In this document: in pieces, positions 48,325 through 63,223 of the stretch
Numbering within the stretch: the stretch's first letter is position 1
Layout: every line of letters begins with the position of its first letter
Source of the DNA: Bordetella genomosp. 12
Lineage (GTDB): Bacteria; Pseudomonadota; Gammaproteobacteria; Burkholderiales; Burkholderiaceae_B
Direction of reading: 5' to 3'
DNA: 64,000 nt
NCBI RefSeq assembly: GCF_002261355.1
Contig: NZ_NEVU01000002.1
Span: 1,116,001-1,180,000, forward strand
Translations under genes and position numbers: made by a program
The notes under the pieces: model-generated
What the model was told of the DNA's origin: nothing
Databases searched by the model: none
The model's input: only the letters and a program-made list of their open reading frames with translations

Positions 48325-49611
48325 TTACAGGCGCAGATCCGACGCTTCGGCCGTCAGCACATACTTCAGATCACACAGCACATGGTCGGGCTTGCCCAGC
48401 TTGCGGATGGCTGCGGCCCCCATGTCCACGAACTGCTGGTGCGACACCGCCAGGATGATGGCGTCGTAGCTGCCCTCGGCAGGCTGGGCCACCGGCGTGA
48501 TGCCATACTCGTGGCGGGCTTCTTCGGCATCGACCCAGGGATCGTAGACATCGACATCGACGCTGTACTCGCCCAGCTCCTTGATGATGTCGACCACGCG
48601 GGTGTTGCGCAGATCGGGGCAGTTTTCCTTGAAGGTCAGGCCCATCACCAGCACGCGCGCGCCCTGCATGTGCAGGCGTTTCTTGGTCATGCACTTGACC
48701 AGCTGCGACACGACATAGCCGCCCATGGCGTCGTTCAGGCGCCGGCCAGCCAGAATGATCTCGGGGTGGTAGCCGATGGACTGCGCTTTGTGCGTCAGGT
48801 AGTAGGGATCCACGCCGATGCAGTGCCCGCCCACCAGGCCCGGACGGAAAGGCAGGAAGTTCCACTTCGTGCCGGCGGCTTGCAGCACGGCCTCGGTGTC
48901 GATACCCATCTTGTTGAAGATCAGGGCCAGCTCGTTGATGAGCGCGATGTTGACGTCGCGCTGGGTGTTCTCGATCACCTTGGCGGCCTCGGCCACGCGG
49001 ATGCTCGAGGCCTTGTGGGTGCCGGCGACGATGATCTCTTTGTAGAGCTGGTCCACCAGCTCGGCGACCTCGTCGGTCGAGCCCGAGGTCACCTTCTTGA
49101 TGGTCGAGACGCGGTGCGTCCTGTCGCCCGGATTGATGCGCTCGGGGCTGTAGCCGGCAAAAAAATCCTCGTTGAACTTCAGGCCCGACACGCGCTCGAG
49201 CACCGGCACGCAGTCTTCTTCGGTGGCGCCCGGATAAACGGTCGATTCGTAGATGACGATGTCGCCGCGCTTGAGCACCGCGCCGATGGTTTCGCTGGCC
49301 TTGATGAGCGGTGTGAGGTCCGGCTGCCTGTACGCGTCGATCGGCGTGGGCACCGTCACGATAAAGACATTGGCGCGGCCCAGTTGTTCGAGTTCGGTGG
49401 TATAGCGCAGCTGGCTGGCCTGGGTCAGTTCCTTGCTGTCGACTTCCCGCGTATGGTCGTGGCCCCGGCGCAGCGCATCAACGCGGCGCGCGTTGATGTC
49501 AAACCCGATGACCGAGCGCTTCTTGCCGAACTCCACCGCCAGCGGCAGGCCGACATAGCCCAGTCCGACGACGGCGATCTGCAGATCGGAAAGCGTGGGA
49601 AGCAAGCTCAT
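48325..49611 (-). CDS. tviB: UDP-N-acetylhexosamine 6-dehydrogenase (TviB/VipA/WbpO-like)
   Basis: 428-residue NAD-dependent UDP-sugar dehydrogenase. Rossmann motif [12 protein letters not shown] is at about 14-25, catalytic Cys264 in [12 protein letters not shown], and a C-terminal UDP-binding domain follows ([18 protein letters not shown]). The sequence is of the TviB/WbpO kind that makes UDP-GlcNAcA or UDP-GalNAcA, the precursor type of Vi-like capsules. ATG at 49611 with AGAGG. It ends the capsule operon; no TviC epimerase gene is in the window. Confidence 0.88.
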
Positions 49612-49631: not shown

Positions 49632-50735
49632 TCAATTCGCGCCGACACGCTGGCCGACGATCAGGACTTGCACAATGGGAGTGATGATCTTCTCCCATTC
49701 GTACATGGGCGCGTTGCTGACATAGATGACGTCTTCGGGCCGCAGCTCAAACTGTTTGGCCAGAAACATCGATTCCGGGTTGCGCATATTCAGGCGGAAC
49801 ACCGTCGGGCGGGTTTGTCCCGCGGCGTCCAGACCGTCCAGACGAAAAACGAAGACCCCCGTGGCGTCGGCGGCCCGGTCATTCAGGCCGCCCGCCACGC
49901 CCAAGGCATCGAGCAGGTTGCTGCGTTTGGACGGCAGTTCATGCAAGCCGGGTTTGGTGATGGCTCCCATGGCGACAAAGCGCTTGAGGTTGGGCTCGAC
50001 CACCACCTCCGAACGCGGGTCCAGGGCGACATTGCGGCCATTGAGCAATTGTTGATATGGCACGCGCGTCATGCGCGTCCCGTTGCGAATGATCACGTCC
50101 ACCTGATAGGGCGGCAAGGTGGTGCCGCCCGCTTGCGCCACGGCGTCCAAAGCCGTCAGCGGACTTTTGTTGCCGCCAAAACGACCCGGTTGCGGCACGG
50201 CACCTGTCACCAGCACGGAGTTGGAACGGTCATCGGCCAGGTCCACCATGACCTGCGGCTGCACGGCGGCCGTATTGCGCAATGCGTTCTTGATCATCTG
50301 CTCGATCGCGCCGAGCGTTTTATTGCGTACCCGCAGATGTCCGGCGTAAGGCAGCGAGATCATGCCGTCGGCATCGATCCGCACGGCGTCGAACACCGTG
50401 CCCCCGGCGTTGAGCGGCGCGAACAGCCCGCCCTCCATGCTGTCAGCCACCATAATGCGCAGGACATCGCCGGCGCGCACGCGCATATTGCCGGCGTAGC
50501 CGTCCGAGGTGTTGCCCTCGACCTCCTCGACGCGCCTGAGCACGTACGGCGCTATCGTGGTGGCACTCAAGTCCACGACATCGTAGGCGCCAGGGGTGGC
50601 CGCGCCCTGCGCTGATCCGGCGTCCATGATGGCGCCGCGCGTCGGGCCGGAGCCGGCCAGAATACTGCAACCGGACAGGCCCATCAGTATCACCAAGGGC
50701 AGAAAGCGAAGCACGGGAAGGAAGGGTTTTCTCAT
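49632..50735 (-). CDS. Outer-membrane polysaccharide export lipoprotein (Wza/CtrA/VexA-like)
   Basis: 367-residue OPX protein. The signal peptide ends in a lipobox LSGC (Cys23). A Poly_export domain is at about 80-175 (VRAGDVLRIMVADSM, IDADGMISLPYAGHLRV) followed by SLBB repeats (VLVTGAVPQPGRFGGNKSPLTALDAVAQAGG, GAITKPGLHELPSKRSNLLDALGVAGG). Size fits the CtrA/BexD group of ABC-dependent capsules. It should form the outer-membrane channel with the KpsE-like protein. 8 bases after the GSCR gene stop. Confidence 0.88.
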   Translation of the reverse strand: MRKPFLPVLRFLPLVILMGLSGCSILAGSGPTRGAIMDAGSAQGAATPGAYDVVDLSATTIAPYVLRRVEEVEGNTSDGYAGNMRVRAGDVLRIMVADSMEGGLFAPLNAGGTVFDAVRIDADGMISLPYAGHLRVRNKTLGAIEQMIKNALRNTAAVQPQVMVDLADDRSNSVLVTGAVPQPGRFGGNKSPLTALDAVAQAGGTTLPPYQVDVIIRNGTRMTRVPYQQLLNGRNVALDPRSEVVVEPNLKRFVAMGAITKPGLHELPSKRSNLLDALGVAGGLNDRAADATGVFVFRLDGLDAAGQTRPTVFRLNMRNPESMFLAKQFELRPEDVIYVSNAPMYEWEKIITPIVQVLIVGQRVGAN

Positions 50736-50743
50736 GAGGGATC

Positions 50744-51613
50744 TCAGGACTCCGAATGGGTGGGGCTCTTGCGAGAGCCAATCCGGGCAGCGGCGTGCAG
50801 CTGCTGGTGCAGGTGCTCGGCCAGCACCGCCTCAAACGCCGGGCAATAGTGATTGAGGTCTTCGCCGTCACGGTCCAGCACCTGCTCGCGGGTCATGTCC
50901 CGGGCGCAATCGAGGGGATCGATGACATGCACGCCAGGCAGCGCCGCGGCCGCGGCCTTCACGCGCGCGACGTGCTGGCTGCGCGACACCATGAGGCGTC
51001 CGTCCGGGCGCGGCAGGTCCACATGTGTGACGGCAACGACCGGTTTACCTATGAGCCGGGCGGCATACTGCAGGTCGTCGCGCACGGCCTGTTCACTATC
51101 CAGCGCGCAACGCGCCCGCCGCAGCACCCGCTCGCCGGAGGCCAGCAGCGCCGGTTCGGCCAGCTGCCGGTACTCCCCCATCGCGCGCGCATAATCGTCG
51201 GGGTGAACCGATCCGCTGCGGATCAGGCCGCGCCACCATTGCATGCCGGGCTCGCCCAGTTCACGCACCAGGTGACGCACAACCAGATTCTTCTGCAGGA
51301 ATACCCCGTCGACCTCCACGCTGCGCTCGGCCGCGGCTTCGATCACCACGACGTCGGCCTGCGCCAGTTCGCGGCGATGCGTCTCCTCCAGGCGCGGCAG
51401 GACCGATCGCGCAAAGAGAAAGGGCAGCAACTGCCGGTCCAGCCCCTGGCCCTCGGAAAGCCAACGCAATCGCTGGCGCGCTTCGCGCGTGCTGTGGATA
51501 TAGCCCGGGATACCAGCTGTACACAGCAGCGCCCGCCCCTGCTCCTGAAGCAGGCGGATGGGCCGATGTACCCGGCAACTGCCAAGGACGAACAGTTTGA
51601 GTGGCTCTCTCAT
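50744..51613 (-). CDS. GSCR-motif SGNH-like protein of the capsule locus
   Basis: 289 residues, soluble, no signal peptide. I know no name for it. The N-terminus has FVLGSCRVHRP, with the Ser where SGNH enzymes have their block-I nucleophile. The C-terminus has EDLNHYCPAFEAVL, a DxxH like SGNH block V. It shares four blocks with the N-terminal part of the protein at 60280-62457. It lies inside the export operon, nine bases after the GT4 gene, so a role in modifying the polysaccharide (for example acyl transfer or removal) is a reasonable inference. A non-enzymatic role is possible. Confidence 0.6.
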   Translation of the reverse strand: MREPLKLFVLGSCRVHRPIRLLQEQGRALLCTAGIPGYIHSTREARQRLRWLSEGQGLDRQLLPFLFARSVLPRLEETHRRELAQADVVVIEAAAERSVEVDGVFLQKNLVVRHLVRELGEPGMQWWRGLIRSGSVHPDDYARAMGEYRQLAEPALLASGERVLRRARCALDSEQAVRDDLQYAARLIGKPVVAVTHVDLPRPDGRLMVSRSQHVARVKAAAAALPGVHVIDPLDCARDMTREQVLDRDGEDLNHYCPAFEAVLAEHLHQQLHAAARIGSRKSPTHSES

Positions 51614-51622
51614 GTCGAACGT

Positions 51623-53704
51623 TCAGGGCCCTTGGTAGCACCGCACGGTGGCGGCGATCATTTGCGATAAGGAAAAGCGCGCCCGTGCCCATTGGCGTGC
51701 TTTGTCTGCGATCGCGGCATCCTCTTGCCGCATCTCATACAAGCGGGTCAAGGCGGCGCTGACTTCCTCGGCCGTCACGCCTTCGGCAGGCAGGGTCAGG
51801 CCCGTGACGCCTTCCTGCACGGCCTCGCCCGCGCCGCCGGCCAAGGTGGTCACCACCGGCACCCCCGAGAACTGCGCTTCGATCAAGACATTGGGTAGCC
51901 CCTCGAAGCGCGATAGCAGCAAAAACGCATCGAACTGCCCCAGCCAGTAGCCCACACGCCGGGACAGACCGGTGAACAGGATGCGGTCGGCCATGCCCAG
52001 ACGTTCGGCAAACTCTTTGACCGGTTCGAGCAAGGGTCCTGCGCCGACCATGACGAAACGGGCGCGTGGATGAGTGCGGGCGAAATGCTGCGCCGCTTCC
52101 ACCCACAAGAACGGCCGCTTGTTTTCGTCGACACGCATGACGGTGCCGATGGTGAAATCCTGCTCAGGGGTTTTATCCGCAAAAGCGGACATCATGTTCT
52201 CGGCGGCCTCATCGCTGACGGCTTTCAACGGGGCCAGGCCGTTGTAGACCACGGGAATCCGGCGCGCATCCAACTGCAGCCACTCGGCGTAGCGACGCGC
52301 GGCGAAACCGGAGTTGGAACTCAACACCACGCCCCGCATCTTCAACAGCTCCGAGTAAATGATGTCGTACTCGACGCGGTAACGATCGGGACGGTCCACC
52401 GGCGGCATGGTGCGCACCGACAGCACGATGCGCGGCACGCCCGCCAGCAACGCCGCCAAAGCGGTGGCGAAGATAGAACCGTCTTGCCAGATGTGGACAA
52501 TGCGCGGTGCGCCCGAGCGCATCACATCGGTCAATTTACTGGTGCCTTCGATGATCTGCTTGGGCAGAAATCGCAGGTACTCACGATACGGTGCCAGCAG
52601 CGAAGCAAACTCCGAGCCTCCCCAGGCGTGCATGTCCGCATACACCGCCACCGGGATGCTGTGCTCGCGCAAGGTGGCAGCGAAGAAGTCCGCACCCTCG
52701 CGGCTGCGCAAGGAACGGCAGACGACCTGAATCGGTCCCAACACGTCATGGCCGGCGATGGTTCGCCCCTCCTGCAGGGCAGTCTGCAAGGCGACCGCCG
52801 TATTGACGAACTGCCGCTCTGCGCCGCCCGCGCCCAGGGAGCCATTGATCATCAACACCTTCCCGACGAAGCTGTCCGGTTCGGCATCCAGCTCCTCGTT
52901 ACGGCGCCGCCCGATCTCTTGAAACAGCCGTTGCAGCACCAGTACGCTGACCGGCACATTGCTCTGCGACCAGGACACCCCGAGGGCTGTCAACGCCGCC
53001 AGGTCTGCCTCCAGATCGGCAAGGCGGCGGGTCAACTTACGTCCGCGCTCGCCCAGCCGTTTGAGTCCGAGCTGCAAGATTTCCCGGCCGCGCCAGAGGA
53101 CGCCGCGCCGGTTCTGCGACTGCGCCCACACGACATAGCCGTCCTCGAACTCCGGATGCGTGTCCACCAATCGAGCGAAGGCTGCGTCGGCCAACTGCGG
53201 CTGGCCGATCTCATCCCAGCTTTTGGCTTCCAGCAGAATGTCGCGCGCGGCCGTGCTGCCGCCGGCGAAGAACTGTTCGATTTCCTCCCGCGCGGCTTCG
53301 ACACCCAGTTGCCGCTTGACGCCGCGCAGCGTCAGGATGAAGGCGTCCGCCGAGTCGGGAAAGCGCATCTGAATCCCACGCCATACCGCCAGGCTGTCAT
53401 CGGGGCGATGCGCGGCCTCCAGGCTGCGTGCCACCAACACCTGAAAGAGCTCCGTATCCGGGTAGCGGCGCACGTACTCGAGCAAACGCGGCACCGCATT
53501 GAGTGCGTCATTGGCCGCGACATGCCGCTGCATGACCGCCCGGGCCTCCTCCTCGACTTCGCGGCCCGGAGCCTCCTCCTGCACGGCCCCCACGAGCACC
53601 TCGTCCAATTGCACCGAGAAAGCGGGCGGCGCAAAGGCGGCGGCGCTGCCGCTTCGCTGCGGCGCCTGCTCCTGCCTGCGCAAACGAGATAGGAAAGAAA
53701 ACAT
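51623..53704 (-). CDS. GT4-family capsule glycosyltransferase with TPR-like N-terminus (TviE/VipC-like)
   Basis: 693 residues. Roughly 60-290 is an alpha-solenoid-like region. The GT-B half starts at MINGSLGAGGAERQFVNTA and contains VVYNGL, GTVMRVDENKRP, FVMVGAGPLLE, ILFTGL and the donor motif SRFEGLPNVLIEAQFSGVPVV. The overall kind recalls Vi TviE. It probably polymerises or co-polymerises the aminouronic acid chain. ATG at 53704; 29 bases separate it from kpsE. Confidence 0.83.
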   Translation of the reverse strand: MFSFLSRLRRQEQAPQRSGSAAAFAPPAFSVQLDEVLVGAVQEEAPGREVEEEARAVMQRHVAANDALNAVPRLLEYVRRYPDTELFQVLVARSLEAAHRPDDSLAVWRGIQMRFPDSADAFILTLRGVKRQLGVEAAREEIEQFFAGGSTAARDILLEAKSWDEIGQPQLADAAFARLVDTHPEFEDGYVVWAQSQNRRGVLWRGREILQLGLKRLGERGRKLTRRLADLEADLAALTALGVSWSQSNVPVSVLVLQRLFQEIGRRRNEELDAEPDSFVGKVLMINGSLGAGGAERQFVNTAVALQTALQEGRTIAGHDVLGPIQVVCRSLRSREGADFFAATLREHSIPVAVYADMHAWGGSEFASLLAPYREYLRFLPKQIIEGTSKLTDVMRSGAPRIVHIWQDGSIFATALAALLAGVPRIVLSVRTMPPVDRPDRYRVEYDIIYSELLKMRGVVLSSNSGFAARRYAEWLQLDARRIPVVYNGLAPLKAVSDEAAENMMSAFADKTPEQDFTIGTVMRVDENKRPFLWVEAAQHFARTHPRARFVMVGAGPLLEPVKEFAERLGMADRILFTGLSRRVGYWLGQFDAFLLLSRFEGLPNVLIEAQFSGVPVVTTLAGGAGEAVQEGVTGLTLPAEGVTAEEVSAALTRLYEMRQEDAAIADKARQWARARFSLSQMIAATVRCYQGP

Positions 53705-53733
53705 GGTTGAAGTCGTCTCCGGGTGGATGCGCG

Positions 53734-54906
53734 TCAGGCGTGATCGCGTATGGCGTACACCACCAGAACGACCACGATCCAGAGAATCAGAAAGCCCAGC
53801 AAGCCCAACGCCGTATCGACCCAGCGGCGCGGGTATTGCGATTCGTCGGCCAAGGTGGGTTGCGAGGCGATAACGGTGTAGAGCACTTGCCGCGCCGCAA
53901 GACTGCGGGCGTCTTCCAGCCCTTTGAGCGCGCCGGTGTAATAGACCTCGGCGAACTGACGTTCGGTTTCCGCCGACTCGTACTCGCGCAATACGGTGGA
54001 CAGGCTATCGGCCTTGTCCGCCCCGCGCCCGACACTGATCTGCTGGTCATTGAGCTCGCGCAACTGGCCCTGCAATGCCCGCAGGCGGGCCTGCGCGCGC
54101 TCCAGCCCAGGGCCGCCGCGCACGCCGCCTGCGCGCAAGGTGGCAACTTCGGCCGCCGTGGCGGCGATATCGCCGCGCACCTTGGCGGCCAACTGCAGAT
54201 TGGCTTCGGCCTCCTTGACGGGGTCGAGTACGCCAGTGCGCGCACGCAAGTCCTGCACCTTCAGCCGCGCGGCCGATAGCCGCTGCTCTGCGCCCTCGAC
54301 TTCCAGATGGGCGAAGCGAACGCTGTCCTCCCGCGCCTTCTTGGACATCTGGTTGACCAGCGTCTCGCTGGCCTGCAGAATCGCCTGCGACAGCCGCAAG
54401 GAGTCTTGCGGCGTGAAGGCCCTGACGCGCAGAATGATGGCCCCGGTCGACATATCGAACTGGATGTCGACCATACGGTTCCAGTGACGCCACAAAGACT
54501 CTTCAGACGCATCGCCCGATACGCGGTACCAGAAGTCGATCGCCGGCTTGGACCACATCTCGCGCAGGTTGAGTGTCTTGTCCAGCTCGCGCACGATCTG
54601 CCGCGACTTCACATAGTCAACGACCGCAAAGGAATCCACGAACAGCTCGGCCGTCATTTCGGCGCCACCCAGCGTCGCGTGCCCCTCGCGACTGGCCGCG
54701 GAGGCCTGCGTCACGGACCCCGCCCGCAGGCCAAAGCGGGCCTCCGACACGTACTGGTCCGCGGCAATCAGCAGCAGATACAACGCCAGCAACAGGCCAG
54801 GCAAAACAATCAGCAGCACGGCTGAATGCCGCAGCCAGCGCGACGGACGCCGCGGGGCGGTTCCGGGCAAGGCTGGACCGCGATAAGGTGTCTCCGAAGT
54901 CGTCAT
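53734..54906 (-). CDS. kpsE: Capsule export inner-membrane periplasmic adaptor KpsE/CtrB/VexD-like
   Basis: 390 residues from ATG at 54906; an ATG at 54924 is in frame and neither has a good ribosome site. TM at about 28-47, Wzz-like start of the periplasmic domain (QYVSEARFGLR), coiled-coil at about 190-290 (AEQRLSAARLKVQDLRARTGV), second TM at the C-terminus (WVDTALGLLGFLILWIVVVLV). It spans the periplasm between KpsMT and the OPX channel. Confidence 0.87.
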   Translation of the reverse strand: MTTSETPYRGPALPGTAPRRPSRWLRHSAVLLIVLPGLLLALYLLLIAADQYVSEARFGLRAGSVTQASAASREGHATLGGAEMTAELFVDSFAVVDYVKSRQIVRELDKTLNLREMWSKPAIDFWYRVSGDASEESLWRHWNRMVDIQFDMSTGAIILRVRAFTPQDSLRLSQAILQASETLVNQMSKKAREDSVRFAHLEVEGAEQRLSAARLKVQDLRARTGVLDPVKEAEANLQLAAKVRGDIAATAAEVATLRAGGVRGGPGLERAQARLRALQGQLRELNDQQISVGRGADKADSLSTVLREYESAETERQFAEVYYTGALKGLEDARSLAARQVLYTVIASQPTLADESQYPRRWVDTALGLLGFLILWIVVVLVVYAIRDHA

Positions 54907-54932
54907 AAAGGCACAGGCTCTCATCTAAAAAA

Positions 54933-55646
54933 TCACGTTTCGCTGTTGGCGGCTTGCGGGTCGGGGTCTTCTACCCGGCCGACGGCCTGGGTGAAGCGTT
55001 CGCTCACTGCCGTGAGCTCACCAAACCCTTGCAGACGGCCATCTCTCAATATCAATCCGTGGGTACAAAAGCGCCGCACGGTGGTCGTGGAACTGGAGGT
55101 CATCAGAATGGTCGCGCCGCGAGATCGCTCGGCGAACACCTCCAGGCACTTGCGCTTGAAGTCCATATCCCCGACCGCGAGCATTTCATCGACCACATAG
55201 ACGTCACAGGCCAGCGCCATGGAGACCCCGTAAGAAAGCCGGGCCCGCATACTGTTGGCATAGGTCGACACAGGCAGGTCGTAGGCCCTTCCCAGTTCGG
55301 AGAACTCCTGCACGAAGCGCTCGACTTCGGCAACGTCACAGCCATAGACGCGGGCGATGAAACGCACGTTGTCGCGTCCGGTCATGGAGGAGCTGATGGC
55401 GCCGGCGAAACCCAAGGGATAGGACACGCGCGCACGCCGCCGTACGACTCCGCTGTCGGGCAACTCCATGGCGCTGATCATGCGCAGCAGCGTGGACTTG
55501 CCGCTGCCATTGGCCCCGAGAATGGCGACGTTCTGCCCGGCCACGAAGTCGAATCGCACCCGGTCGAGGACCGTCTTCACACCTTTCTTGGACCGGAAGG
55601 CTTTGCTGACGTCGTACAGGGAAATCAGGACGGAGGCGTCTGTCAT
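54933..55646 (-). CDS. kpsT: Capsule export ABC ATPase KpsT/VexC-like
   Basis: 237 residues. Walker A GANGSGKST is at about 44-52. YPLGFAGAISSSMTGRDNVRF and the degenerate signature NSMRARLSYGVSMAL are KpsT-type, and Walker B is DVYVVDEML. ATG at 55646, nine bases after the kpsM stop. Powers export through KpsM. Confidence 0.92.
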   Translation of the reverse strand: MTDASVLISLYDVSKAFRSKKGVKTVLDRVRFDFVAGQNVAILGANGSGKSTLLRMISAMELPDSGVVRRRARVSYPLGFAGAISSSMTGRDNVRFIARVYGCDVAEVERFVQEFSELGRAYDLPVSTYANSMRARLSYGVSMALACDVYVVDEMLAVGDMDFKRKCLEVFAERSRGATILMTSSSTTTVRRFCTHGLILRDGRLQGFGELTAVSERFTQAVGRVEDPDPQAANSET

Positions 55647-55655
55647 GGCAGGGGC

Positions 55656-56429
55656 TCAGCGCGTATGCAGGCGGCGCCGCATGGCCCGCTCCAGGCACAG
55701 CCCGAGCACGGTCACGGCAATCGACCACTCAATCAGATAGGAGCGATCCAGGGTCAGCGAGCTGAAATTGGCGAAATAACCCTCTCGGAACCACTCGATG
55801 GCATGGACCATGGGGTTGTAGACCAGGACGGCACGTGCCTTTTCCGGCAGCGCGTCGACCAGATAGAACACTCCCGACAGGAGATAGAGCGGGCGGGTCA
55901 CCGCGCTGTAGAGGTGCTCCCATGACTTGAACATCATGTTCAGCACGGCATTGATCAAGCCCACGCCGAAACCGAGCAGGAACGTGAAGCAGGCAGCCAG
56001 TGCGCAAGTCTCCACATTCTCCGGCAGGATCAATTGGCCGCCGAGCAGGGTAAGAAAGAGCAGGATGCCGAAGACGGCGATCCACGTCAGCGCCTGGAGC
56101 AGCGCTTTGGCGAAGATCACGTCCATGTTGGTGATCGCCGGCAGCCGCAGCAACTGCGTGTTCGAGGTGATGGCCCGCGACAGGCGCGATGAGGTGTGGC
56201 TGAACAGAAAGAACGGCATGATGCCGGTGATGAAGAACATCTGCAGGTTGCCCAGGGGCGCCTGCCTGCCCCAAACCACGTAGATCGTCGACAGCACGGC
56301 CACGTGCATGATGGGCTCGATCAAGGCCCACAGATAGCCCAACCGGGTGCCACCAAAGCGCACCCGCGTCTCTCGGTAGACCAGTGCCGCAACGACTCTG
56401 GCTTGCGTGGCAAGCAACTGCGCGCTCAA
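55656..56429 (-). CDS. kpsM: Capsule export ABC permease KpsM/VexB-like
   Basis: Permease with six helices; RVRFGGTRLGYLWALIEPIMHV and MPFFLFSH, YNPMVHAIEWFREGYF are ABC-2 capsule marks. The frame is open to a GTG at 56567 (303 residues), but that extension is Arg-rich and unlike the family. A TTG at 56429 with AGGG upstream gives 257 residues, the usual KpsM size, and I prefer it with low certainty about the exact start. First gene of the minus-strand capsule operon. Confidence 0.85.
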   Translation of the reverse strand: MSAQLLATQARVVAALVYRETRVRFGGTRLGYLWALIEPIMHVAVLSTIYVVWGRQAPLGNLQMFFITGIMPFFLFSHTSSRLSRAITSNTQLLRLPAITNMDVIFAKALLQALTWIAVFGILLFLTLLGGQLILPENVETCALAACFTFLLGFGVGLINAVLNMMFKSWEHLYSAVTRPLYLLSGVFYLVDALPEKARAVLVYNPMVHAIEWFREGYFANFSSLTLDRSYLIEWSIAVTVLGLCLERAMRRRLHTR

Positions 56430-56730
56430 TGCGCCGACCCTGCGTGAATGTCCATTTCCTCTCCGATCCGGGCGCCTGGACGCCAATTGATGCCAAGGCC
56501 GCCTGGCCGTGGTGCTGGAAACGGGAGGGATGATACGGGCCAGAAACTCGCGCCGATATTTCAACACTTATCAAATAAAACCAAGTGCGAATATTTTCCG
56601 GCTTGAAAATGGATGATTTGGCTGTTTTCTATAATTTTATTATCAGCCAGACGATCTTCCGGCTGCCACCCTGGGGAGCAGCCCGTGGATGAAGCGTCAA
56701 TTTTCAAGTATCCATAGCCGAGCCGGATAA
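56430..56730. promoter_or_regulatory. Divergent capsule promoter region
   Basis: Bases 56565-56650 are strongly AT-rich (for example TTTTCTATAATTTTATTATC near 56624-56643), in contrast to flanking genes. This should hold promoters for kpsM (minus) and the GT2 gene (plus). TATAAT at 56629-56634 is a good -10 candidate on the plus strand. Confidence 0.5.
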
Positions 56731-58071
56731 ATGATCGGAACCATTCTGTTAAATATTTGCCAGAAACGCGCACATAAAACCGTCAATTTGTTGCAGAACT
56801 GGGAGGTGATGCATCGCTACCCCAACGATGCAACGCGGTTGAATCGCGTGGGTCTGTTCGATATCGCGCGGTGCAGCAATCGGCGCGGGCGCGATCAGGC
56901 CCTGGCCCGAGCCCGCGCAGCATTGGAATGGAGCGGCTCAGATCCGGGGCTGCGGCCCGAAGACTTCCTGGGGAAAGTGTCCGACTACGAGCGCCAGCAG
57001 TATGCCCTTGCCCTCGGAAGGCTGGACCCCGCCCGTGCGCATGCCTGGCTCAGGCGTTCGGAGAGCGCGCTGGCCTTGGGCTTGGCGCTGGCCGCCGGCG
57101 ACGCCCAGGCCGCACAGTGGCACGCATCGGCACTGGCGCCCTCACGGCGAGATGATCTTAAAAAAGCGAATAATTTGCATGCAGTTGTTGCTGCGCAGCA
57201 TTGCTTTTCCGGACTGCATGGTCAAGCGCGAAAACATTTAACTTATCTCCTCACAAACGCCGGCTTTGGCCTTGCCGAGAATAATCTTCCTCTAAGGATG
57301 GACGATTTCATTCCCGCTGATTCCCCATCTTCGGCCGCGCAGATCCAGGATGCGGGTTTGGTCAGTGTAATAATCTGTGCGCACAATGCGGCGGCTTTCA
57401 TAGATAAAGCCATATTATCCATTGCGCGGCAAAGCTATCGAAATATTGAAATCGTAGCGATTGATGACGGATCGGAAGATAACACTTACGCACATATATG
57501 CTCCGCCGCTGAAATTAATCCGCGTATAACTGCGCTGCGGATAGAAAACCGCGGAACATATGCCGCGAGAAATTTCGCGCTGAGCCAGGCAAGCGGCCGA
57601 TTCATTACGTTTCTCGACGCCGACGACGTCATGCTGCCCCGACGCATCGAGCAGCAGGTCGAGCCGTTGCAATACGCCGGGATCGTGGCCAGTACCAGCC
57701 GCCTGCTGCGGCTCACCGGCCAGGGCCGGATCGTTTCTCCGCGCATCTATCCGCTGATCCGCCACAACCCCGCGTCGCTGATGATGCGCCGCGAGGTCCT
57801 TGAACGCCTCGGTCCCTACGAGGAAGTGCGTTTCGGAGCAGACGACGAGTATGAACACCGTATACGACTTCATTGCGGCCCCACCAGCGTGCGACGCGAC
57901 GCCCAGGTGCAGACCATTGCCCTGCACCACCCCGACTCCCTGACGCAGTCCGCCGCAACCGGCCTGGACTCAGCGGCAGGCCGGCAGGCTCGCATCCGCT
58001 ACCGCGAAGCGTGGACCAGACGCCATATGGAACAGGGCCTGTCCGCCAAGCCCCCACTCTCTTTTGAGTAA
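56731..58071 (+). CDS. GT2-family glycosyltransferase with helical N-terminus
   Basis: 446 residues. An N-terminal helical part of about 200 residues is followed by a GT-A domain: SVIICAHNAAAFIDKAI, IVAIDDGSEDNT, NRGTYAARNFAL, the DxD region FLDADDVM and DDEYEHRIR. Activity is probably addition of a sugar from a nucleotide donor to the capsule or its anchor. The stretch about 57150-57600 is visibly poorer in GC than both ends. ATG at 56731 is chosen; ATG at 56809 is possible but GGGAGG is too close to it. Divergent from kpsM. Confidence 0.8.
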   Translation: MIGTILLNICQKRAHKTVNLLQNWEVMHRYPNDATRLNRVGLFDIARCSNRRGRDQALARARAALEWSGSDPGLRPEDFLGKVSDYERQQYALALGRLDPARAHAWLRRSESALALGLALAAGDAQAAQWHASALAPSRRDDLKKANNLHAVVAAQHCFSGLHGQARKHLTYLLTNAGFGLAENNLPLRMDDFIPADSPSSAAQIQDAGLVSVIICAHNAAAFIDKAILSIARQSYRNIEIVAIDDGSEDNTYAHICSAAEINPRITALRIENRGTYAARNFALSQASGRFITFLDADDVMLPRRIEQQVEPLQYAGIVASTSRLLRLTGQGRIVSPRIYPLIRHNPASLMMRREVLERLGPYEEVRFGADDEYEHRIRLHCGPTSVRRDAQVQTIALHHPDSLTQSAATGLDSAAGRQARIRYREAWTRRHMEQGLSAKPPLSFE

Positions 58072-58076
58072 AGGTC

Positions 58077-60113
58077 ATGACCGCCAGCAACGTAATTCGT
58101 CCTTTCAGCTTTGGCCGACCGACGGCCGCAACCCATGAAGCAGAGCAGATTCTCGCGCGTCTCGAGCAAGAGCATGCCGCCCGCGTCCAGGCCGAGAAAG
58201 ATCTGGCCAACGCCCGCGCCCTGCTGCGTGAAACCACTCAGCAACTGGCAAAGCAGCGCCTGACGCTGACCTGGAAGTTCGGCGAAGCCGTCATCCGGGC
58301 TCGCAATGTGGCCGACTACTTGCTCCTGCCCTATACCCTGCTGAGGCTGTCGCACGCGCATCGCCGCGAACATCGGCACAATCCGGTTGCGCGCAAACCG
58401 GGCGCCGCCGTTCTGCCCGCCGAGACGGCGAGCGCCATCAAGGACGCGTTGGACTACGTCAAACGCGTGCGCAGCCCGGAGGTGCTGCTGTGGTGCGCTC
58501 GCCAAAACTGGCCGACCGAAGTCCGCAGCAAGGTCTATTGCGAGATTGCGCGGTGGGCGCGCACGAGCTATCCCGACATCGCCGAGCAAGTCGCCCAACA
58601 GTTGCTGGAAATCGATCCGGGCGCGCCACACAGCCGTCAACTGGCATTCAGCCTGTTCGACGCGGGGCTGGTCACGATCGCGTCGCGCCTGCTCAAGGCC
58701 GCCAGCGCCAGCGGCGTGCGCCTCAACACTGCGGAGTCCCAGCGGTATGAGCGTATCGCTGCCGCACATGCTGTTCTGAACGCCACGGATACCGGCCCAG
58801 GTCCAGCAGGACACCGCTATGACTTTTCCGGTAGCGGCCCGGTTGTGATACTGGCCACGCACAGCCTGCTGCAGCGGCGCGGCGCCAACGAGAATGCCCT
58901 GCACCGTTATGCCACCAGCCTGGCTGCACGTGTCGGTGAAGTGCAAGTGATCAGCCTCGAAACCAGCGAGGAGGATCCCGCCGAAGCCGAACGGGCCGGC
59001 GCTTCGAGCTTGCGTGTGGACGGCGTCATCTATCAGGCCGTGACGCCGGAGCAGGCGCGACAGGCACGCCTTCGACCCGCCGCCTTCGCCGACGCAGTGC
59101 TCGCCCATACGGTGGAGCGGCGCCCACGCGCGGTTCTGGCTTGGGACGACGCACGTTGCGGCCTCGGCGCCCATGCCGCCGCCACGAGCCTGCGCGTGCC
59201 CTACGGTTTCATCGTGCAAGGACTGAATTTCTTTCAGAAGACTGCTGCCAATCATCGGCTCTCCGAGCGCGCCATGGCCGATTTACGCTTGCTCAAGCGC
59301 GCGCTGCGCCAGGCCGACATGCTGGCATTGGGCACCCCCGCGCTGGCCGCGGCCTTGCACCCCCTGATGCCCTCCGAGCCCGCCGTCAGCCTGTTGCCGC
59401 CTCTGCCTCTGCCCGCGGCCAACCTGCGCACCCCGAACAGCGACGCGGCGCTTGCGGGCACGCTCGCGCGCCTGCGCGACCGCAAGGTAATCGTTTGGAG
59501 CGAAGACGAGCCGCCGGCCATGTTGGCCCGCGTGGTGATAGACCTCTATGCGGAACTGGCCTTGCACGACGCGAACGCCGTCCTGCTGGTGCTATCCGAT
59601 GGGCGTGCCGCCGCCGCCATGCGCCAGCACGCCGTGGCAATCGGCCTATCCGAGGACCAGGTCATCTTCGCGCCGGCCATCACCGATGCCGTGTCGCGCG
59701 AACAGCTGTTGCGGCAAGCGCATCTCGCACTCTTTCCCTACTGGCCCACCCGGGCCGAGCAGGCGGCCATGCCGGGCGTGGCCGCCTTGCTCGAAGCCAT
59801 GGCGCTGGGCCTTTGCCCTGCGGTCGGGCCGAATCCCGCCTATACCGACATCGTCAGCCACGGCGAGAACGGCATCCACCTCGATCTGGCCGACGCCGCC
59901 GCCGACGGCGCGCAGAACCTGCACGAGCTGCTCGGCGACGCCGCCCGGCTGGCGCAGTATGGCCGCAAGGCCCGCGAATCCGTTCAACGTCACCTGCCCT
60001 GGCAGGCTTATGAAGACGCCATTACCGCCATGCTGATGCAGGCGGCCACTCCCGATCCCGCCAACCCGGCGCAACGCGCCGAACCGCAGTTCGCTGGCGT
60101 GCGCGCACGCTGA
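58077..60113 (+). CDS. GT4-like (GT-B) glycosyltransferase with N-terminal coiled coil
   Basis: 678 residues. A coiled-coil stretch is at about 20-62 (HEAEQILARLEQEHAARVQAE), a helical segment follows, and from about 255 a GT-B fold: VVILATHSLLQRRGANENALHRYA, FIVQGLNFFQKTA, VIWSED, then LFPYWPTR and the donor motif EAMALGLCPAVGPNPAYTDIV. ATG at 58077, five bases after the GT2 stop. Probably builds the capsule repeat or linker with its neighbour. Confidence 0.75.
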   Translation: MTASNVIRPFSFGRPTAATHEAEQILARLEQEHAARVQAEKDLANARALLRETTQQLAKQRLTLTWKFGEAVIRARNVADYLLLPYTLLRLSHAHRREHRHNPVARKPGAAVLPAETASAIKDALDYVKRVRSPEVLLWCARQNWPTEVRSKVYCEIARWARTSYPDIAEQVAQQLLEIDPGAPHSRQLAFSLFDAGLVTIASRLLKAASASGVRLNTAESQRYERIAAAHAVLNATDTGPGPAGHRYDFSGSGPVVILATHSLLQRRGANENALHRYATSLAARVGEVQVISLETSEEDPAEAERAGASSLRVDGVIYQAVTPEQARQARLRPAAFADAVLAHTVERRPRAVLAWDDARCGLGAHAAATSLRVPYGFIVQGLNFFQKTAANHRLSERAMADLRLLKRALRQADMLALGTPALAAALHPLMPSEPAVSLLPPLPLPAANLRTPNSDAALAGTLARLRDRKVIVWSEDEPPAMLARVVIDLYAELALHDANAVLLVLSDGRAAAAMRQHAVAIGLSEDQVIFAPAITDAVSREQLLRQAHLALFPYWPTRAEQAAMPGVAALLEAMALGLCPAVGPNPAYTDIVSHGENGIHLDLADAAADGAQNLHELLGDAARLAQYGRKARESVQRHLPWQAYEDAITAMLMQAATPDPANPAQRAEPQFAGVRAR

Positions 60114-60279
60114 GATCCCATGCAGATGCAACAAAGACTCAAGCCCGACGCGCGCACGTCCATGCGCCAGGCCGCGCAGCCATTGCACTGTCGTTACGTA
60201 AGCACACCCCCTGCATAAGGCTTGAAGCCAGGCCTGCGCTATCTTCAAACCGCTGTTGAACAAGACGGAGTCTCTCACC

Positions 60280-62457
60280 GTGAATATCACTACGATCGGA
60301 TCCTGCCGTGTGGCCGGGCCCATGGCCAAAGTCCAGGCCCGCCGCAATTTCGTGCTCGATAACCGCCTTTTGTATGGCTACACGCACAACACGAAAGAGG
60401 CCATACAGGCCATTCGCTACATGCGCGGCGACCTGAGCATTCCGGCGAGTCTTTGGCCCTTCATCTCCGGCCAAAGCCATCGCGAGGGCAACCCCAAACT
60501 GGGGCAAGGCAGCATTCCCGCCGAAGACCGGCACGTGGTCGAGATCAGCTCCATCAAGGTTCTGGAGCTCGACGGCTATCAATTGCAGCTGGTGCGCTTC
60601 AAAGAGGCCTTGGCCTTCTGCCCCGATCTGCGCAAAATATTCTTTGAGCATGGGTCGGCCGAGGCACGGGCTGAGCGTCTGCGACAGTTGCAGGCCAGCC
60701 CCACCTATGCGCGGGTGCCCGAATCCGTGCAGCATGTCCTGGCCCAAACCGTGCTGCGCACGCAAACGGCGGCCGAGATCGAAGGCGACCTCAAGCAGAT
60801 TGCCCTGTTGCTGGGGCCCGCCTTTGTGCTTGTCACCCATTGCAATGCCATGAACGCCCACGGCGAGCTCATCGCCGACCGCGCCAAGATGGTGGATCGC
60901 GTCTCGCGCGCCTGCGCTCGCGCTGGCATCACGCTGGTCGACCCGGGCTCTTTGCTGGCGGCCTATGGCCAGGAGCGCGGCATGCCCGATGACGGACGCG
61001 ACACCGCGCATTACACGCCTGCCTTTGCGCGTCTGGTAGGTAAAGAAATCTGCGACAAACTGCTAGGCGTGCAGGAAACCGCCGCTTTGCCGGAGGGCGA
61101 GGCGGCGCTGGATTGGAAACAAAGCCTGGAGCGCGCCAAGGCCTGCGGCCAGACCCAGGCCTGGGATCTTGCCCTGCTCTATGCCAACCGCGCGATCGAA
61201 CTCAAGCCCAACGTTTCGGCCGCCTACGTACTGCGCGCCCGGGCCATGACGGCGCTGAGCCAGAATGATGAGATTCTCGACGCCTGGGGCGCTGCCTTGG
61301 CCATCGATGCCAATCGCAATGCCTATATTCTGCGCCAGGCCGCCGAGTGCGCCTTGGGCCAGGGGCAGATTGACATGGCGCGCGAATGGGCTCAGGAATC
61401 CCTGCAACGCGAGAGCAGCGAGAAAACGGCGCTCTTGCTGGGCCGCATCCTTGCTCGGCTCGGTCACAACCAGGATGCCGAACAGGCCTTTCGCGTCAGC
61501 GCGCAGGCCGCGCCGGAACGGTCCTTGCGTCATGCCTTGCGTAGCAGCACGCCGCTCGAGGAAGGCGCCAGCATGGTCAGCGCCTTGGCCGCCACCCACG
61601 CCGTGGATGGCGCCAGCTTGCAAGGCGCGCGCGAGCAGGTGCTCAAAAGAGCCCGCCGCGAAGTGCGGCACGCGGGACGCGCAGGCGCTCTGCTGCCCAG
61701 CCTCGGCGCCTTCTATGCGCTGCAGACCCTGGCCGGCGAGCATAAGAGCGAGCTCGACGACGACATCAATCAAGCCTATCGGCGCATGCTCAAAGCCTAT
61801 GAGGCCAACGCGGAGTATCGCAACAGCGAGATGGCCATCCAGTTGCTGGCGGATCTAGCCGCGCTGGATGCCGTCGACGTCCGCTATGTCCAGCGGGCTG
61901 CCAAACAATTGCAAAGCGATGGCCATGCCGACGCAGCAATCGCCTGCTGGCATCGTCTGGCCGGCGCCACACTGCCGGCGGAGTCGGACAGCGTGCTGCT
62001 GGCAGCGGCCCGCCTGGTGCAGCTCGGCGCGCATGCCGATGCCGTCGCGGTGTATCGCAGGCTGGCCCAAAGCGGCGTGCTGCAACCCGAACAAACCAAA
62101 GCCATGATCGAGAAAAGCTTGCGGGCCCTGGCGCGCGCCATGCGCCGCCATCTCACGGAGGGCAATCTGAGAATGGCCGAGCAGGAGGTGCGCGCCATTC
62201 GCGCCATCGACCCGGCCTATGCCGGCCTGCCGTCGCTGCAACGCACGCTGTCCGATGCGCACAAGCGCGAGTTCCAGGATCAGCGGCAGCAGTCCAAAGA
62301 CCAGGGTGAGGTGATCGCCAGTGCCAGGCGTGTCATCGAGAGCAATCCCATGGACCGCGAGGCCAACGTGGAACTGGTGATGCAGAGCCTGCGTACCGGC
62401 AACCTCAACGAAGGCCGCCGGCTGCTGGAGCGCTTCATGGAAAACGCCCCGGCTTGA
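60280..62457 (+). CDS. GSCR-motif SGNH-like domain fused to TPR repeats
   Basis: 725 residues from a GTG at 60280 with GGAG at nine bases. A TTG at 60256 is in frame. Residues 1 to about 260 are the GSCR domain (TTIGSCRVAGP at the N-terminus, GRDTAHYTPAF at its end), paralogous to the protein at 50744-51613. From about 275 come TPR-like helices (ALLYANRAIELKPNVSAAYV, AAECALGQGQIDMAREWAQ) to the end. No signal peptide or TM. 166 bases after the glycosyltransferase on the same strand. A polysaccharide-modifying or scaffolding role is inferred from context only. Confidence 0.6.
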   Translation: MNITTIGSCRVAGPMAKVQARRNFVLDNRLLYGYTHNTKEAIQAIRYMRGDLSIPASLWPFISGQSHREGNPKLGQGSIPAEDRHVVEISSIKVLELDGYQLQLVRFKEALAFCPDLRKIFFEHGSAEARAERLRQLQASPTYARVPESVQHVLAQTVLRTQTAAEIEGDLKQIALLLGPAFVLVTHCNAMNAHGELIADRAKMVDRVSRACARAGITLVDPGSLLAAYGQERGMPDDGRDTAHYTPAFARLVGKEICDKLLGVQETAALPEGEAALDWKQSLERAKACGQTQAWDLALLYANRAIELKPNVSAAYVLRARAMTALSQNDEILDAWGAALAIDANRNAYILRQAAECALGQGQIDMAREWAQESLQRESSEKTALLLGRILARLGHNQDAEQAFRVSAQAAPERSLRHALRSSTPLEEGASMVSALAATHAVDGASLQGAREQVLKRARREVRHAGRAGALLPSLGAFYALQTLAGEHKSELDDDINQAYRRMLKAYEANAEYRNSEMAIQLLADLAALDAVDVRYVQRAAKQLQSDGHADAAIACWHRLAGATLPAESDSVLLAAARLVQLGAHADAVAVYRRLAQSGVLQPEQTKAMIEKSLRALARAMRRHLTEGNLRMAEQEVRAIRAIDPAYAGLPSLQRTLSDAHKREFQDQRQQSKDQGEVIASARRVIESNPMDREANVELVMQSLRTGNLNEGRRLLERFMENAPA

Positions 62458-62570: not shown

Positions 62571-63071
62571 TCATTGCAGCAGGCTGCGCAGCATCCACGC
62601 GTTTTTCTCGTGGACGTCCAGGCGCTGGGTGAGCAGATCGGCGGTAGGCTGATCGTTGGCGGCATCGGCTTTCTCGAAGGCCGCGCGGGCGGTCTTGGCG
62701 ACGGCCTCATTGCCCTTGACCAACATGCGGATCATCTCGAGCGCTTCGGGCACATTGCTCGGCTCTTCGATGGACGTGAGCTGGCCATACTCGCGATACG
62801 TGCCGGGCGCGTAATGACCCAACGCACGGATGCGTTCGGCGATGGCGTCGAGCGCACCCCACTCTTCCGTGTACTGCGTCATGAACATATTGTGCAGGGT
62901 GTTGAACAACGGCCCGGTCACGTTCCAGTGGAAGTTGTGCGTCATCAGGTACAGCGAGTACGAATCAGCCAGCAGCTTGGCCAGCTCGCCTGCGACAGCC
63001 GCCCGATCCTTGTCGGAGATACCGATATTGATGCGCGGTGCGGCAGTGCTGTTCTTGGTCGATTTTGCCAT
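62571..63071 (-). CDS. dps: Dps, DNA-binding ferritin-like protein
   Basis: 166 residues forming a dodecameric iron store that protects DNA. Ferroxidase motifs are in THNFHWNVTGPLFNTLHNMF and EEWGALDAIAERIRALG; the C-terminal helix is DLLTQRLDVHEKNAWMLRSLL. The N-terminus is short and Lys-poor after MAKSTKN. ATG at 63071 with AAGGAG; the frame is open to 63275 with no other start signal. Usually stress- or OxyR-controlled; no site was identified. Confidence 0.92.
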   Translation of the reverse strand: MAKSTKNSTAAPRINIGISDKDRAAVAGELAKLLADSYSLYLMTHNFHWNVTGPLFNTLHNMFMTQYTEEWGALDAIAERIRALGHYAPGTYREYGQLTSIEEPSNVPEALEMIRMLVKGNEAVAKTARAAFEKADAANDQPTADLLTQRLDVHEKNAWMLRSLLQ

Positions 63072-63223
63072 GTAGTGCTCCTTCTCTAAAGGCGACGGAA
63101 ACACATCAAGAATACCACCGAGAGACACCCCGTCGCATCGGCGCAGGCCTGGGGTCTTGCGGCGGCGGCCGCACGCCGGATCCCCGTACGGCCACCGGCG
63201 CTCGGCTCGCCGCGCGGCTTGCC

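What the first reader, a model, noticed from the sequence alone, without database searches (positions are those of the whole stretch)
50744..62457. Two paralogous GSCR/DxxHY proteins flanking one capsule locus
The protein at 50744-51613 and the first about 260 residues of the protein at 60280-62457 align in four blocks: GSCRVHRP / GSCRVAGP; HSTREARQRLRWL / HNTKEAIQAIRYM; VVAVTHVDLPRPDGRLMVS / FVLVTHCNAMNAHGELIAD; DLNHYCPAF / DTAHYTPAF. The Ser near the N-terminus and the terminal DxxH are spaced as in SGNH hydrolases. One copy is free inside the export operon, the other is fused to TPR repeats beside the glycosyltransferases. I know no described family with this pair, and they may modify or terminate the polysaccharide.
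Basis: partly seen in the sequence, partly recalled or inferred. Interest (0 to 1): 0.75.

Follow-up and report, generated by a model that had tools for sequence, protein, structure and literature searches.

The report
Stand-alone relative of capsule acetylase TviD
Two related proteins in a typhoid-Vi-like sugar-capsule locus belong to the family of TviD, the enzyme that puts acetyl groups on Vi capsule; one is the usual long form and the other is a short extra copy found so far only in Bordetella, so the family is known but the short copy and its exact job are not settled.

Summary
In detail: both proteins share one domain over about 270 residues (27% identity, E 8e-19). The family is not undescribed: both match the N-terminal half of TviD, the Vi-antigen O-acetyltransferase, in a Vi-like capsule locus with TviB, TviE and exporters. 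The long protein is the TviD homologue with its TPR-like tail. The short one (SMALL, minus strand) is a tail-less paralogue found in 7 of 268 family genomes, all of one genus, Bordetella where named. The supposed catalytic Ser is Thr in 28 classical TviD rows; the next residue, Cys, and the D and H of DxxH are invariant (42 of 42), so Cys is the likelier nucleophile. SMALL is probably B. pertussis 'vipC': published deletion primers map to its gene in a related genome, and that mutant lost anti-Vi surface staining. Genomes with this locus type lack VexE (0 of 12) and all hold KpsC/KpsS relatives (12 of 12). Best reading: a second cytoplasmic polysaccharide O-acyltransferase. Fold and activity were not tested.

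The parts
50744..51613 (-). SMALL: stand-alone TviD-N-domain paralogue, 289 aa, no TPR region; G-S-C13-R, V-T-H197-x-D199, D252-x-x-H255-Y
   Evidence: (NF011727 TviD E 2.1e-13, residues 7-263)
60280..62457 (+). TviD homologue of the divergent locus type: N-domain plus TPR-like C-terminal region; G-S-C9-R, D241-x-x-H244-Y
   Evidence: (NF011727 E 1.3e-28, residues 2-252)
51623..53704 (-). TviE-type GT4 glycosyltransferase, presumed Vi-like polymerase
   Evidence: NF011726 1034 bits against cut-off 733
49632..50735 (-). VexA/Wza-type outer-membrane polysaccharide export protein
   Evidence: NF011658 E 3e-41, VexA model E 3e-21, both below cut-off
48325..49611 (-). TviB-type UDP-GlcNAc C-6 dehydrogenase
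   Evidence: NF011729 693 bits against cut-off 592
53734..54924 (-). KpsE/VexD-type inner-membrane export protein
   Evidence: TIGR01010 E 3e-67, below cut-off
54933..55646 (-). KpsT/VexC-type ABC ATPase
   Evidence: no model above its cut-off among the 25 shown
55656..56567 (-). KpsM/VexB-type ABC permease (true start may be further in)
   Evidence: NF050053 E 1e-34, below cut-off
56731..58071 (+). GT2-domain glycosyltransferase, seen only in the divergent locus type among the regions compared
58077..60113 (+). GT4-like glycosyltransferase, seen only in the divergent locus type among the regions compared
62571..63119 (-). dps, bordering gene of the capsule site in many relatives

Best explanation
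The locus makes a Vi-like polysaccharide in the cytoplasm: TviB supplies the uronic-acid sugar nucleotide, TviE polymerises, KpsMTE/VexA export. The long protein is the locus's TviD: its N-domain transfers acetyl groups to the polymer and its TPR tail docks on TviE. SMALL is a second enzyme of the same catalytic domain without the docking tail. It is most likely a cytoplasmic O-acetyl- (or other O-acyl-) transferase acting on the same polymer or its end at another position, with an invariant Cys13 at the SGNH serine position, D252/H255 as the acid-base pair, and H197 also in the site. Shown: homology, invariant residues, purifying selection, operon position, restriction to this locus type in the genomes examined, and that published vipC deletion primers map to an orthologue. 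Inferred: acyl-transfer chemistry, donor, acceptor position, Cys nucleophile, roles of D252, H255 and H197, fold.
For: The TviD model hits both proteins. TviD is described as a membrane-associated O-acetyltransferase whose TPR region recruits TviE (passage in PMC9597891; acetyltransferase role also in a passage of PMC11385387). G-x-C-R, H40, E44, Q47, E92, Q107, R113, VTH195-197, R211, G250, D252, H255, Y256 are invariant in 42 of 42 rows: 6 SMALL, 12 long copies from this locus type, 24 classical TviD. SMALL is under purifying selection (dN/dS 0.088, 0.152, 0.174 in the three pairs tested). It lies 9 bases after tviE and 8 before vexA. The two inner primers of the B. pertussis vipC deletion fall in the 5' end (2 mismatches) and 3' end (exact) of the SMALL gene of G084, and the two outer ones in TviE and VexA (exact). 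The paper reports that this mutant stains with anti-Vi serum like a deletion of the capsule operon, that is at background (passages in PMC4264864). A tviD::Tn5 insertion likewise gave no Vi signal with a Vi-specific monoclonal antibody (passages in PMC3448643). No export signal is evident at SMALL's N-terminus, which runs straight into the first motif (my reading of the sequence; no predictor was run).
Against: No structure, no assay, no polymer chemistry. SMALL has its own fixed residue at 11 positions that are fixed or nearly fixed in the 36 TviD rows, among them Asp199 for Asn (36 of 36) and AA for SS at 94-95, so activity or specificity may differ. Five loci of the same type in another genus lack SMALL, so it is not core machinery there, yet the vipC deletion reads as fully stain-negative. 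That staining is weak (about 20% of wild-type cells positive), and no vipC complementation was in the passages read. The G084 copy is itself frameshifted. Sequence and profile searches do not establish an SGNH fold.
Confidence: 0.55

Rival explanations
1. SMALL is an esterase that trims acetyl groups from the polymer, balancing the TviD-type transferase, as many SGNH enzymes hydrolyse esters.
For: Same domain and same invariant Cys, D and H. N to D in the VTHxN motif and SS to AA after the invariant Glu could change transfer into hydrolysis.
Against: Losing an esterase should leave more, not less, anti-Vi epitope, whereas the vipC deletion abolished staining (mapping).
Confidence: 0.15
2. SMALL is a catalytically weak paralogue that serves as a structural partner of TviE, TviD or the export complex.
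For: It is encoded between tviE and vexA, lies on a long branch, and the published deletion reads as loss of the whole surface capsule.
Against: The residues invariant across the family are kept in 6 of 6 intact copies, which a scaffold would not need.
Confidence: 0.17
3. SMALL acylates the reducing-end anchor in place of VexE.
For: VexE is absent from all 12 genomes found with this locus type and present in all 13 examined genomes with a classical-type TviD.
Against: Five loci of the same type have no SMALL and their genomes no VexE. All 12 genomes carry KpsC/KpsS-family proteins, near the locus in 5, which points to a Kdo-type anchor instead.
Confidence: 0.06
4. Ordinary SGNH serine hydrolases with the Ser of GSCR as nucleophile, as first read.
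For: DxxH is invariant; sub-threshold Lipase_GDSL_2 hits reach that region in some long copies.
Against: Ser is Thr in 28 classical TviD rows. Cys, not Ser, stands third after Gly, where SGNH proteins have Ser: the 24 usable GDSL_2 proteins of 25 fetched read GDS there.
Confidence: 0.05

Closest known systems
TviD (Vi polysaccharide O-acetyltransferase; NCBIfam NF011727)
   Same: Both proteins align to its N-terminal domain; the long one also has a TPR-like tail and a TviE partner gene.
   Different: The classical copies fetched are mostly 826 aa with GTCR; the long protein here is about 725 aa with GSCR and scores 99.6 bits against a cut-off of 1808; SMALL has no tail, Asp for Asn in VTHxN, and a separate branch.
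B. pertussis vipC (gene deleted in PMC4264864)
   Different: In the passages read it is called a capsular polysaccharide biosynthesis protein; the term tviD does not occur in that paper's main text.
SGNH/GDSL hydrolase superfamily (Pfam PF13472)
   Same: G-x-[nucleophile] near the N-terminus and DxxH near the domain end.
   Different: Cys instead of Ser; Pfam matches below cut-off and only to long copies; fold not tested.
WcbI (PF18588) and DUF6270 (PF19786)
   Same: G-x-C at the first motif in the one WcbI and in one of two DUF6270 examples fetched.
   Different: No Pfam match of our proteins to either family and no profile similarity.
Classical viaB (Vi) locus
   Same: TviB, TviE, TviD and VexA-D type functions.
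   Different: Divergent gene order, two extra glycosyltransferases, no VexE, no tviC beside it (a TviC-like gene lies on another contig).

Membership tests
TviD family (N-domain homology) | Significant match to the TviD N-terminal domain | tested here: met
   Long: E 1.3e-28; SMALL: E 2.1e-13
TviD equivalog as NCBI defines it | NF011727 score at or above 1808 bits over the whole protein | tested here: not met
   99.6 and 49.3 bits; both are therefore called homologues, not TviD proper
[quoted passage not shown]
   Long: TPR-like by PDB matches and weak Pfam hits. SMALL: not met, no tail (289 aa). TviE binding not testable
TviD function | O-acetyltransferase activity on the polymer | not testable with these tools
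   Reported for TviD in passages of PMC9597891 and PMC11385387; not for these proteins in any text read
SGNH hydrolase superfamily | Block I Gly-x-Ser nucleophile | tested here: not met
   G-[S/T]-C-R; Cys third, invariant 42 of 42; the second residue varies Ser/Thr
SGNH hydrolase superfamily | Block V DxxH | tested here: met
   42 of 42
SGNH hydrolase superfamily | Profile match to PF13472 above cut-off | tested here: not met
   4 of 14 members, best 17.9 bits against 32.9, no SMALL row among them; hhalign to 24 GDSL_2 proteins at most 1.7% probability
SGNH hydrolase superfamily | Three-layer alpha/beta fold with the triad in contact | not testable with these tools
   Structure prediction switched off
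WcbI and DUF6270 families | Pfam match to PF18588 or PF19786 | tested here: not met
   No hit at E 10 or 5
Classical Vi locus | VexE anchor acyltransferase | tested here: not met
   0 of 12 genomes found with this locus type; 13 of 13 examined with a classical-type TviD
Vi-like locus in the wide sense | TviB and TviE above NCBI cut-offs | tested here: met
   693 against 592 and 1034 against 733 bits

The most novel reading that the evidence does not exclude
SMALL founds a Bordetella-only branch of TviD-type enzymes that use a Cys nucleophile and work without the TviE-docking tail. It puts a second, differently placed O-acyl group on a Vi-like polymer carried on a Kdo-type anchor, and that group is needed for the capsule to appear at the surface, so that acylation acts as a licence for export.
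Probability: 0.2. Interest if true: 0.6.

Novelty: new variant of a known kind. Interest (0 to 1): 0.4.

Why it matters
O-acetyl groups weigh heavily in immune recognition of Vi-type capsules (recalled, and in line with titles and abstract starts in the listing), and the capsule of animal-adapted Bordetella has, as I recall, no published structure. A second TviD-type enzyme, matched to an existing knockout and to a locus type that lacks VexE and occurs with KpsC/KpsS relatives, makes concrete predictions about that structure: an extra acyl group and a Kdo-type end. It also moves the likely nucleophile from Ser to Cys.

Tried and rejected
Structure prediction: switched off, so no fold search was possible. 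PDB sequence searches with the long protein, SMALL and profile A1 gave no SGNH hit. hhalign of four TviD-type profiles against 24 GDSL_2 proteins, two DUF6270, one WcbI and eight unrelated control alignments: nothing above 2.8% probability. GDSL_2 ranked first for two of the four profiles, but at 0.5% and 1.0%; for the other two a control scored higher. hmmsearch with a GDSL_2 profile built here: best E 0.095, not significant. VexE replacement by SMALL: rejected because five loci lack SMALL in genomes that lack VexE. The idea that SMALL is a recent copy of the long gene beside it: not supported. The long copies of this locus type group together (100/98) and SMALL is outside them on a branch of 3.5 changes per column (100/100), though midpoint rooting, the long branch and odd letter make-up of one SMALL row leave its age uncertain. 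The genome-contig scan used one peptide pattern around DxxHY, so stand-alone copies lacking that motif would be missed. Samples of order (399 genomes) and class (369) found no further stand-alone copy, but these are samples.
Full report
OBSERVATION. Both genes exist where stated. The first is on the minus strand, 289 aa; the second is on the plus strand, 725 codons from a GTG at 60280. They align over 271 positions at 27% identity, E 8e-19; 2000 shuffles of the short protein reached at most 28.1 bits against 83.2. A search of the own genome with the short protein found no third copy.

WHAT IT IS. Pfam has no family for the shared domain, but NCBIfam's TviD model matches both: long protein residues 2-252, E 1.3e-28; short protein residues 7-263, E 2.1e-13. 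Neither reaches the equivalog cut-off of 1808 bits, so I call them TviD homologues. The neighbours are TviB and TviE above cut-off, and KpsM/T/E and VexA-type exporters below their cut-offs. Held papers describe TviD as the Vi O-acetyltransferase (passages in PMC9597891, and PMC11385387), the first adding a TPR region that recruits TviE. The primary source they cite (Wear et al. 2022, PMC8760489) is not held. From recall only, its abstract models TviD as SGNH-like with an atypical catalytic triad and reports active TviD and TviE homologues in a B. bronchiseptica locus.

TWO LOCUS TYPES. Gene maps of relatives fall into two kinds. Classical: tviD-tviE-vexA-kpsM-kpsT-kpsE in one direction, with TviB hit ahead of it in 7 of the 10 such regions fetched by handle, TviD mostly 826 aa. 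Divergent (this window): kpsM-kpsT-kpsE-tviE-[SMALL]-vexA-tviB one way and GT2-GT4-tviD the other, TviD about 725 aa. I found the divergent type in twelve genomes. SMALL is in all 7 of these in the window's genus (G000, G082, G083, G084, G085, G087, G088; in G084 it is frameshifted). It is in none of the 5 in another genus (G007, G008, G024, G025, G040), where tviE and vexA overlap or nearly touch. In the family-wide search 73 of 268 genomes had a TviD-type match at E 1e-5 and only those 7 had a SMALL-type one, at 54% identity or more; the next best matches are 22-29%. Named records with SMALL are B. pseudohinzii, B. hinzii and Bordetella genomosp. 5 and 1.

ANCHOR. VexE, the acyltransferase for the Vi lipid end (PMC9597891 passages), was not found in 12 of 12 divergent-type genomes or in 3 of 3 genomes without a TviD match. 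KpsC/KpsS-family proteins (PF05159) are in 12 of 12 divergent-type genomes, close to the locus by coordinates in G007, G008, G084, G087 and G088. The contrast is not clean: 4 of 15 genomes with a classical-type TviD also have them, and 1 of 3 without a TviD match. In the window's genome they lie on another contig in a second capsule locus with NeuB, LegB, NeuD and KpsM-type genes, so sharing would be in trans. That KpsC/KpsS build a Kdo linker is recalled knowledge.

ACTIVE SITE. The alignment holds 42 sequences (6 SMALL, 12 divergent-type TviD, 24 classical TviD). The broken SMALL of G084, the broken TviD of L049 and repeats were dropped; G084's TviD was kept because its N-domain is whole. 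In SGNH proteins the nucleophile is the third residue of G-D-S, as in the 24 usable GDSL_2 proteins of 25 fetched; here the third residue is the invariant Cys. SMALL has its own fixed residue at 11 positions that are 95% or more fixed in the 36 TviD rows, among them N to D199 and SS to AA 94-95. Evidence for the SGNH fold itself is weak here, and structure prediction was off.

IS SMALL WORKING? dN/dS is 0.088, 0.152 and 0.174 in three pairs, against 0.046-0.094 for TviE, TviD and VexA in the five pairs tested: purifying selection, perhaps somewhat relaxed. A published B. pertussis vipC in-frame deletion used primers of which wbpTF lies in TviE, wbpTR in the 5' end of SMALL (2 mismatches), wzaF in the 3' end of SMALL and wzaR in VexA of G084 (10 of the 12 primers typed were found with at most 2 mismatches, two were not). 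So vipC is, with fair confidence, SMALL. The passages read say the mutant lost anti-Vi surface staining while lung colonisation was like the parent's except at day 17. Staining was weak, with about 20% of wild-type cells positive. Another paper states that TviD (BP1618) of B. pertussis has been reported as a pseudogene (passage in PMC7774529); in G084 the TviD tail is cut and partly inverted.

INTERPRETATION. The simplest account is that SMALL is a second O-acyltransferase for the same polymer. Antibody-negative mutants are what loss of an acetyl epitope would give, as may hold for tviD::Tn5, but loss of the polymer would look the same. Esterase, scaffold and anchor-acylase rivals are listed with their tests.

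NOVELTY. TviD, its acetyltransferase role and (recalled) its SGNH-like modelling are known. The short TPR-less paralogue, its match to vipC, and the Cys reading were not seen in the passages read, nor in the listings of the searches. The key paper could not be read, so they may be in print. Papers were seen as passages (PMC9597891, PMC3448643, PMC11385387, PMC7774529, PMC8116675, PMC12722373) or passages plus the first part of the Discussion (PMC4264864).

Noticed in passing
L032 (G083) and L037 (G084): The capsule loci look decayed: in G083 the TviB and GT4 hits fall into pieces and the VexA frame is interrupted; in G084 SMALL is frameshifted near residue 110 and the TviD tail is cut after about residue 635 and partly inverted.
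   Followed up: partly
window 62571-63119 and L049, L051, L052: The site beside dps holds the divergent locus type in some genomes and the classical type in others, as at a capsule-switch site.
   Followed up: partly
L120 (G000:C3:764500-784000): A second capsule locus in the same genome with export protein, KpsM, LegB, NeuB, NeuD, KpsS and a KDO8P synthase, pointing to a nonulosonate capsule.
   Followed up: partly
L122 (G000:C1:1311000-1326000): A second TviB (706 bits, above cut-off) next to a TviC-like epimerase (475 bits, below cut-off), with a MurJ-like protein and an amidotransferase, perhaps an O-antigen locus that could supply UDP-GalNAcA.
   Followed up: partly
L063: A Burkholderiaceae metagenome-assembled genome has a classical-order locus whose TviD reads GSCR, not GTCR, on a long branch.
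   Followed up: no
G022: One genome carries two TviD matches (843 and 826 aa frames) and two VexE matches, so probably two Vi-type loci; only one was mapped.
   Followed up: no
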